This document shows, one piece after another, positions 262 to 1,149 of a DNA stretch of 64,000 nucleotides. Under the pieces are notes generated by a model. It was not told where the DNA came from. It did no database searches and worked only from the letters and a program-made list of their open reading frames with translations. Position 1 is the stretch's first letter. The number at the start of each line of letters is the position of its first letter. A program made the position numbers and the translations under genes. This stretch comes from Megasphaera sp. NM10. GTDB taxonomy: Bacteria; Bacillota; Negativicutes; Veillonellales; Megasphaeraceae. The DNA lies in contig NZ_APHY01000035.1 of NCBI RefSeq assembly GCF_000417505.1, forward strand, positions 4-64,003, written 5' to 3'.

Positions 262-316
262 TAAAAAAAGAGAGCTGTCGCACAAAGCCGAAATGGCTTA
301 ATGCGACAGCCCCTTT
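262..316. terminator. Bidirectional hairpin terminator
   Basis: GCTGTCGCA (274-282) pairs with TGCGACAGC (302-310). A run of A precedes the stem and CCCCTTTT follows it, so it can terminate from either side. It lies after the transposase fragment. Confidence 0.7.
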
Positions 317-322
317 TAAGTT

Positions 323-357
323 GTTAGTGGCTAGCAGTTAGTGGTTAGCGGATAGCT
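323..357 (+). repeat. Heptamer tandem repeat, 5 units
   Basis: Five exact-length 7-base units: GTTAGTG, GCTAGCA, GTTAGTG, GTTAGCG, GATAGCT. Register is perfect although the units differ in sequence. This is a member of the dispersed heptamer family described in the findings. Confidence 0.8.
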
Positions 358-392
358 TAAAATTTAAAAGTTTTCTCTGCAAATTATAAAGC

Positions 393-445
393 AACAGGGA
401 CAGTCGCATGATGGTCAAAACCTTCGTGCGACTGTCCCTGTTTTT
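393..445 (+). terminator. Strong intrinsic terminator-like hairpin
   Basis: AACAGGGACAGTCGCA (393-408) pairs perfectly with the segment at 427-442, and T441-T445 follow. No gene on the plus strand directly precedes it. The T-run overlaps the first base of the CRISPR repeat at 443. Confidence 0.7.
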
Positions 446-530
446 CTGAGCTGCCTATGCGGCAGTTAACCAAGGAAGAATCCCTGTTTTTCTTTTTCAA
501 AATTTCTAAGCTGCCTACACGGCAGTTAAC
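443..530 (-). CRISPR. Minimal type I-F-like CRISPR array (two repeats, one spacer)
   Basis: Two 28-nt repeats (443-470 and 503-530) flank a 32-nt spacer (471-502). The repeats differ only at positions 6, 16 and 17. Each has the I-F hairpin core AGCTGCCT-NNNN-GGCAG. Compared from memory with the Pseudomonas aeruginosa PA14 I-F repeat, read as its reverse complement, the second copy differs at two positions. Both 28-nt repeats and 32-nt spacers are standard for type I-F. By that comparison the array reads on the minus strand, so the AT-rich side from 531 rightward would be the leader. No cas gene lies in the window. Caution: CCCTGTTTTTCT occurs both just before repeat 1 and inside the spacer, so a local duplication of a hairpin element is the alternative. 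Confidence 0.68.
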
Positions 531-666
531 AGGTTACTCTTATTTAACCAAAATTTCAGGCATTTGTCAAAAGGCTTGATTTACCAGCCTGCAGGCAAAG
601 AAAAAATTTTAGGTCAAAAAATCGTGAGTCTGTCGCGGCGGAACGCCGCATCTGAATCCGCGGCGG
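531..666. other. Non-coding stretch, possible CRISPR leader side
   Basis: AT-rich sequence with no credible gene. The part nearest the array could be its leader if the array is read on the minus strand. A short GC-rich palindrome (GCGGCG-GAA-CGCCGC) lies near 637-651. I see no further CRISPR repeat here. Confidence 0.4.
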
Positions 667-694
667 CCTGCGAACTGCGAACGGCGGCCTGCGT
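667..694 (-). repeat. Heptamer tandem repeat, 4 units
   Basis: Units CCTGCGA, ACTGCGA, ACGGCGG and CCTGCGT in register. As reverse complements these match the GTTCGCA-type variant of the heptamer family. Confidence 0.65.
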
Positions 695-701
695 CCTTTA
701 A

Positions 702-1130
702 TCATTTATGTTCCACTTTATGTGTCACTGCGCTCAAGGCCGCTGCGACGGGACCCATACCGCGCAGGACCATGGGGAAAAAGAGGAAGAGGACACCCAT
801 GGCGCCGACGTTGGCCGAAATGACGATGACCGCCATCCCGGGCTGGCAGACGGTCCCAAAGAGAAGACCGTTCGGACAATTCGCCTGAACGGTCTGTCCG
901 GCATCGGGGCCATCTTCCATGCGCAAGGTGACGATCTGATCGCCCACACGGCTTCCGTCTTCCTGCAGATTATCGCGGACAATATCGACGACGCGGGCCT
1001 TTTCAAAGACCCGGCCATCGCTGTTGACCAGCTGCGGCTTATCGACCTGGTTATACTGCCAGAGGAAAAGGCCGCCGGCCACCATCAGCACGACGATGAC
1101 GACCAGGCGGAACCAGCGGGAGTGGATCAT
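702..1130 (-). CDS. YibE/F-like N-terminal domain protein, probably truncated
   Basis: A 142-residue protein with a membrane anchor at about residues 8-25 and a second hydrophobic stretch near 102-118. Between them is a soluble domain (ARVVDIVRDNLQEDG ... GDQIVTLRMEDGPDAGQT) that resembles the N-terminal domain of YibE/F membrane proteins. Full YibE/F proteins continue with several more membrane helices; this one stops soon after the second helix, so it looks like a fragment or a short paralogue. ATG at 1128-1130 is preferred; TTG at 1134-1136 is in frame upstream. It follows the Sel1 protein closely. Function is unknown and the family call is tentative. Confidence 0.5.
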   Translation of the reverse strand: MIHSRWFRLVVIVVLMVAGGLFLWQYNQVDKPQLVNSDGRVFEKARVVDIVRDNLQEDGSRVGDQIVTLRMEDGPDAGQTVQANCPNGLLFGTVCQPGMAVIVISANVGAMGVLFLFFPMVLRGMGPVAAALSAVTHKVEHK

Positions 1131-1149
1131 GCTCAATTACGTAAAAATG

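What the first reader, a model, noticed from the sequence alone, without database searches (positions are those of the whole stretch)
443..530. Two-repeat array with type I-F CRISPR geometry and no cas genes
Two 28-base repeats with three differences enclose a 32-base spacer, exactly the I-F unit sizes. The core AGCTGCCT-N4-GGCAG and the GTTAAC end match the I-F repeat (two differences for the second copy against the P. aeruginosa repeat, compared from memory). It lies beside a transposase remnant and a terminator. It may be a relic of a lost locus, a solo array served by Cas proteins elsewhere, or a guide array linked to a mobile element. A short repeat shared by the spacer and upstream flank (CCCTGTTTTTCT) leaves local duplication as an alternative.
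Basis: partly seen in the sequence, partly recalled or inferred. Interest (0 to 1): 0.85.

Follow-up and report, generated by a model that had tools for sequence, protein, structure and literature searches.

The report
Orphan I-F array targeting its cas3
A gut bacterium (probably Megasphaera) that has lost its type I-F CRISPR genes still carries the promoter end of the old array with a single guide, and that guide matches the cas3 gene of a related I-F system, so it may block re-entry of such systems, as orphan arrays do in E. coli.

Summary
Two 28-nt repeats enclose a 32-nt spacer (443-530, read on the minus strand). Both repeats exceed the curated score of Rfam's CRISPR-DR4, and they are the only two copies in the genome. 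The genome has no detectable Csy4, Csy3 or I-F Cas1, while seven related genomes keep I-F cas genes.

The piece is homologous to such a locus. Window 535-620 aligns with the csy4 stop codon, intergenic DNA and leader of relative G004. A TTGACA-17-TTAAAT promoter is kept; 45 nt of leader next to the first repeat are deleted; the cas operon is gone and repetitive DNA abuts it.

The spacer is the key. It matches the I-F cas3 gene of G004 at 26 of 32 bases, with the I-F PAM (CC) in register. Controls do not reach this: 0 of 5000 shuffled spacers, and 22 at best among 390 genuine spacers.

This is therefore an orphan array with one anti-cas spacer, the arrangement described for E. coli orphan I-F arrays, here in Negativicutes. 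Relic status and the anti-cas match are well supported. Expression, and blocking of incoming I-F systems, are inferred. No phage or plasmid target, Cas supply within this genome, or mobile-element link was found.

The parts
503..530 (-). I-F CRISPR repeat 1 (leader-proximal), GTTAACTGCCGTGTAGGCAGCTTAGAAA
   Evidence: Rfam CRISPR-DR4 42.0 bits; two loop differences from the G004 repeat GTTAACTGCCGCATAGGCAGCTTAGAAA; 5-bp hairpin
471..502 (-). 32-nt spacer TTTTGAAAAAGAAAAACAGGGATTCTTCCTTG, matching I-F cas3 of relative G004 at 26/32 with an adjacent CC PAM
   Evidence: target gene identified as Cas3f, TIGR02562 E 2e-268
443..470 (-). I-F CRISPR repeat 2 (leader-distal), GTTAACTGCCGCATAGGCAGCTCAGAAA
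   Evidence: Rfam CRISPR-DR4 42.6 bits; one difference from the G004 repeat; 5-bp hairpin
542..570 (-). leader promoter: TTGACA (570-565), 17 nt, TTAAAT (547-542), preceded by TGG
   Evidence: read from the sequence; conserved in both G004 leaders and found in no other of 17 genomes of the family
535..620 (-). remnant of the ancestral csy4-array junction: csy4 stop codon (TGA 616-614), intergenic DNA and promoter half of the leader; the 45 nt between here and repeat 1 are deleted relative to G004
   Evidence: alignments to G004; promoter-distal part 0 of 1000 shuffles
625..693 (+). interspersed repetitive DNA abutting the remnant where the cas operon should be
   Evidence: 88-90% identical copies elsewhere in G000 and others in G002
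267..447 (.). interspersed element of about 180 bp with a hairpin at each end (267-317, 393-442), directly abutting repeat 2; the left hairpin followed by a T-run would end minus-strand transcripts
702..1136 (-). short ORF related to a YibE/F-like protein of G002 over residues 7-134, with a gap: probably a decayed gene
   Evidence: tblastn 47% identity, E 2e-38; the G002 protein is YibE_F; the ORF itself has no Pfam match

Best explanation
This is the leader end of a degraded type I-F CRISPR locus. The cas operon was lost by a deletion reaching the csy4 stop codon. What remains is the array promoter, a leader shortened by 45 nt, two Csy4-type hairpin repeats and one spacer. The spacer came from an I-F cas3 gene: either the system's own (self-targeting, which would make cas loss advantageous) or that of a related system. 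The most likely present role is an anti-cas guard, as described for E. coli orphan I-F arrays. The promoter makes a short precursor. If DNA bearing a compatible I-F system enters, the incoming Csy4 cuts the precursor into one crRNA, and the incoming Cascade and Cas2/3 are led to the incoming cas3 gene. Shown here: anatomy, homology, absence of the I-F cas genes searched, and the match to cas3 with PAM. Inferred: transcription, processing, interference, and the order of events.
For: Repeats match CRISPR-DR4 and the long arrays of I-F-bearing relatives. The leader promoter block occurs in only 2 of 17 genomes of the family, this one and G004. Window 535-620 aligns from the G004 csy4 stop codon through the leader. 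The 45-nt leader gap is clear in the alignment. I-F Cas genes are absent here and present in seven relatives found by the same searches. The spacer matches G004 cas3 (TIGR02562 E 2e-268) at 26/32 with CC exactly adjacent. Background best was 22 in 457,502 positions; Markov-shuffled spacers with PAM reached at most 23 in 5000; 390 genuine spacers of seven related genomes reached at most 22. In 380 genomes of the class, a pattern with the mismatched positions left open hit only this array and G004 cas3. Anti-cas orphan I-F arrays are described in E. coli (PMC5972030; PMC12814883).
Against: The match is to another species' cas3, with 6 mismatches, one in the seed (position 4), so the guide would work poorly on G004's own gene; a perfect target is not in hand. 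Other Megasphaera cas3 genes do not match at the homologous place (7-19 of 32), so any barrier would be narrow. Transcription and conservation among strains could not be tested. With one spacer, simple decay with no present function fits the sequence about as well. The csy4-derived part is only the stop codon and a few bases.
Confidence: 0.62

Rival explanations
1. Inert fossil: the array's last spacer happened to come from its own cas3, the cells survived by losing the cas operon, and the leftover unit does nothing now and is decaying.
For: Leader truncated, cas genes lost, repetitive elements on both sides, nearby YibE/F-related ORF decayed. The related genome G002 has another I-F fragment: a single repeat with the leader part that is missing here.
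Against: Promoter, both hairpins and spacer length are intact although the rest of the locus is gone; but nothing here measures selection.
Confidence: 0.3
2. Ordinary anti-phage memory: the spacer targets a phage or plasmid and the cas3 resemblance is chance.
For: This is the default for a CRISPR spacer; no tool result supports it here.
Against: No convincing phage, plasmid or viral contig match; the cas3 match exceeds all controls and has the right PAM.
Confidence: 0.04
3. A crRNA-like regulator (CreR/CreA type) silencing a promoter.
For: Such mini-arrays exist in the I-F loci of relatives. The spacer's first ten bases match this array's own promoter at 9/10 next to CC.
Against: Relatives' mini-arrays have 18-27 nt spacers and degenerate repeats beside cas genes; this one has canonical 28-32-28 geometry, an array leader and a match along the whole spacer to a coding region. 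The promoter match is mismatched at position 7 and reached in about 1% of shuffled leaders.
Confidence: 0.03
4. RNA anti-CRISPR (Racr) or guide array of a mobile element such as an I-F Tn7-like transposon.
For: Racrs mimic I-F repeats and carry their own promoter (PMC10651486); repetitive elements flank the unit here.
Against: The unit lies in a chromosomal setting beside clpC-like and Sel1 genes conserved in relatives, has two repeats and a full spacer, and carries the leader of a chromosomal I-F locus. Tn7-like genes were not searched directly.
Confidence: 0.01

Closest known systems
E. coli orphan I-F array (CRISPR4) with anti-cas spacers (Almendros et al. 2016, as described in PMC5972030 and PMC12814883)
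   Same: No I-F cas genes found in the genome, a remnant array with few I-F repeats, spacer matching an I-F cas gene
   Different: Different phylum; one spacer only; leader truncated; target known only from another species at 26/32; function untested
Complete type I-F CRISPR-Cas locus of Megasphaera relative G004 (LT608311.1)
   Same: Repeat (1-2 differences), leader promoter block, csy4-leader junction
   Different: G004 keeps cas1, cas3, csy1-4 and an array of more than 80 repeats; here all I-F cas genes searched are gone and one spacer is left
CreR-type crRNA-like regulators (PMC12737573)
   Same: A short repeat-spacer-repeat unit outside the main array
   Different: No neighbouring cas operon, full-length spacer, coding-region target
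RNA anti-CRISPRs / solitary repeat units (PMC10651486)
   Same: I-F repeat behind its own promoter without cas genes
   Different: Two repeats with a spacer, chromosomal, derived from an array leader

Membership tests
Type I-F CRISPR array | 28-nt I-F family repeat with 32-nt spacers | tested here: met
   CRISPR-DR4 above gathering score for both repeats; 60-nt unit
Type I-F CRISPR array | leader homologous to that of a bona fide I-F locus | tested here: met
Type I-F CRISPR array | protospacer flanked by the I-F PAM (CC/GG) | tested here: met
   CC adjacent in the correct register in G004 cas3
[quoted passage not shown]
   Csy4, Csy3 and I-F Cas1 absent
Anti-cas orphan I-F array (E. coli type) | array without I-F cas genes in the genome | tested here: met
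Anti-cas orphan I-F array (E. coli type) | spacer(s) matching I-F cas genes | tested here: met
   26/32 to Cas3f gene with PAM; controls
Anti-cas orphan I-F array (E. coli type) | array is expressed | not testable with these tools
   promoter sequence present only
Anti-cas orphan I-F array (E. coli type) | prevents establishment of I-F cas genes | not testable with these tools
   needs a transfer assay
CreR-type regulator | degenerate mini-array beside the cas operon with a partial match to a cas promoter | tested here: not met
   no cas operon, canonical unit; relatives' units differ
RNA anti-CRISPR (Racr) | solitary repeat in a virus or plasmid | tested here: not met
   two repeats with spacer; chromosomal neighbours shared with relatives
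I-F Tn7-like transposon guide array | tns genes and I-F3 cas genes nearby | tested here: inconclusive
   no Csy3/Csy4 family match in the genome; tns genes not searched

The most novel reading that the evidence does not exclude
A fossil of CRISPR autoimmunity turned guard: an I-F system captured a piece of its own cas3, survivors had deleted the cas operon and the acquisition part of the leader, and the remaining one-guide gene is kept because it destroys incoming I-F systems. It would be an independent origin, in another phylum, of the anti-cas arrays known in E. coli.
Probability: 0.35. Interest if true: 0.72.

Novelty: new member of a known kind. Interest (0 to 1): 0.58.

Why it matters
Why bacteria lose CRISPR systems, and why orphan arrays persist, is open. 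E. coli orphan I-F arrays with anti-cas spacers could be a peculiarity of one species. A second case in Negativicutes, with the deletion end visible at the csy4 stop codon and a single spacer matching cas3, suggests that I-F systems can repeatedly leave guides against themselves. It offers a small locus on which 'autoimmunity drove the loss' and 'the array guards against return' can be tested.

Tried and rejected
Spacer targets in phages, plasmids and viral contigs: only weak, low-complexity matches or none. A first genome search for the spacer (3 mismatches, every sixth base free) found only itself, because the cas3 match has six mismatches outside those positions; the direct scan of I-F loci found it. 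The first score, which ignored every sixth base, gave 21 of 27 and was only marginal against shuffles; with all 32 positions it is clear. Synteny with relatives' I-F loci: no shared flanking genes except a YibE/F-related ORF near the G002 locus, not enough for a claim. The site beside the Sel1 gene holds a type I-C cas operon in G002, a different system. Match of the spacer start to the array's own promoter: possible chance. The tool's promoter scan does not list the leader promoter because it requires A at the second base of the -10 hexamer. The sequence after the G002 orphan repeat has no convincing I-F target. The annotated record of G004 was not held.

Full report
Observation. The two 28-nt repeats at 443-470 and 503-530 enclose a 32-nt spacer and differ at three bases. 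Rfam's CRISPR-DR4 model matches both on the minus strand, end to end and above its curated score. With up to three mismatches they are the only two copies in the 2.6 Mb genome; a looser 23-mer search adds only unpaired sites at the mismatch limit.

Relatives. Eight of 17 genomes of the family, this one included, carry this repeat type, mostly in long arrays. Seven have Csy4 and Csy3. The genome of the window has neither, and its only Cas1 match (contig C82) is a partial, high-scoring one unlike the weak Pfam scores that the I-F Cas1 genes of relatives give. The assembly is given as 99.85% complete.

Anatomy, read on the minus strand. Window 620-535 aligns with G004 from the csy4 stop codon through intergenic DNA into the leader of the array that follows csy4. 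The part before the promoter alone was not equalled in 1000 shuffles. The leader block holds TTGACA, 17 nt, TTAAAT, shared with both G004 leaders and with no other genome of the family. Between this block and the first repeat G004 has about 45 nt that are missing here; I infer that spacer acquisition signals lay there. The related genome G002 has the reverse fragment, a single I-F repeat with the proximal leader part and no promoter, at another place, so I-F remnants are found twice in this group. At the csy4 end the remnant abuts repetitive DNA (625-693), and at the far end an interspersed element of about 180 bp with a hairpin at each end, with 40 or so matches in the genome. The left hairpin of that element, followed by a T-run, would stop a transcript from the array (sequence).

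The spacer. No phage, plasmid or viral contig matched convincingly. Compared with the I-F loci themselves, it matches the cas3 gene of G004 (L092 minus strand, 5343 to 5312) at 26 of 32 bases, with CC, the I-F PAM, exactly adjacent. The gene is Cas3f (TIGR02562, E 2e-268), and the site lies within the stretch matched by the HD nuclease model. Controls: the same spacer against 457,502 other positions reached 22 at best; 5000 Markov-shuffled spacers against the G004 cas operon with PAM reached 23 once and never more; 390 genuine spacers from seven related genomes, tested the same way against all eight loci, reached 22 at best. In 380 Negativicutes genomes, a pattern leaving the mismatched positions open found only the array itself and G004 cas3; since that pattern was built on the G004 site, it shows uniqueness, not independent discovery. 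Other Megasphaera cas3 genes are not similar at the homologous place, so the source was a cas3 of the G004 kind. That is also the kind whose leader and repeat this array shares.

Mechanism. Spacers are acquired only with Cas1-Cas2/3 present (established knowledge), so the spacer dates from when an I-F system was active. If it came from the system's own cas3, it was self-targeting, and loss of the cas operon would rescue the cell; a deletion reaching the csy4 stop codon fits that. Any I-F system of the right kind that enters later would supply Csy4, Cascade and Cas2/3 and be directed at its own cas3. E. coli orphan I-F arrays are described as doing this (PMC5972030; PMC12814883). Expression, processing and interference are not shown here. 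One mismatch lies in the seed against the G004 gene, so only a closer cas3 would be a good target.

Novelty. Anti-cas orphan I-F arrays are known; this is a new member in another phylum. The open-access library holds no paper combining Megasphaera with type I-F or Csy4, which is weak evidence because most subscription papers are missing.

A second result, outside the finding: I-F loci of relatives carry short-spaced mini-arrays whose spacers match a CC-flanked site upstream of csy1 (G004 17/20, G011 19/20, G002 14/20, G013 16/20), and where there is a mismatch in the first ten bases it is a single one at position 6, the base known to be flipped out in type I targets. This looks like CreR autoregulation, described for type I systems in general (PMC12737573).

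Noticed in passing
L092 ~7934 (G004), L098 ~5792 (G011), L095 minus ~7316 (G013), L093 ~18994 (G002), L096 minus ~12602 (G014): CreR-like mini-arrays (18-27 nt spacer between degenerate I-F repeats) in or near I-F cas operons. In G004, G011, G013 and G002 the spacer matches a CC-flanked site upstream of csy1; in G004, G002, G013 and G014 the single mismatch in the first ten bases is at position 6. The G014 match is not at a cas promoter.
   Followed up: partly
L114 439-466, minus strand (IMGVR_UViG_3300009537_000441): A viral contig with one solitary I-F repeat unit between small ORFs, a candidate RNA anti-CRISPR.
   Followed up: partly
G002:C1:151414-151441, minus strand (in L094): Single orphan I-F repeat with the proximal leader part but no promoter: a second I-F remnant in a relative, complementary to the one in the window.
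   Followed up: partly
window 267-447 and about 40 other places in G000: Interspersed element of about 180 bp with a conserved middle (GTTAGTGGCTAGCAGTTAGT...) and terminator-like hairpins at both ends whose stems vary in sequence.
   Followed up: partly
L101 8076-13720 (G002:C1 ~1932-1938 kb): The place beside the Sel1/clpC-like genes, where the window has the I-F remnant, holds a type I-C cas operon in G002.
   Followed up: partly
L109 10331-11128 minus (G000:C82): The genome's only Cas1 match covers positions 112-282 of 283 and lies near a contig end: truncated or broken by the assembly.
   Followed up: no
L099 5447-8873 (G003): cas3 reading frame split into two overlapping ORFs, and Csy3 broken by stops, in a genome with a long I-F array.
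   Followed up: no
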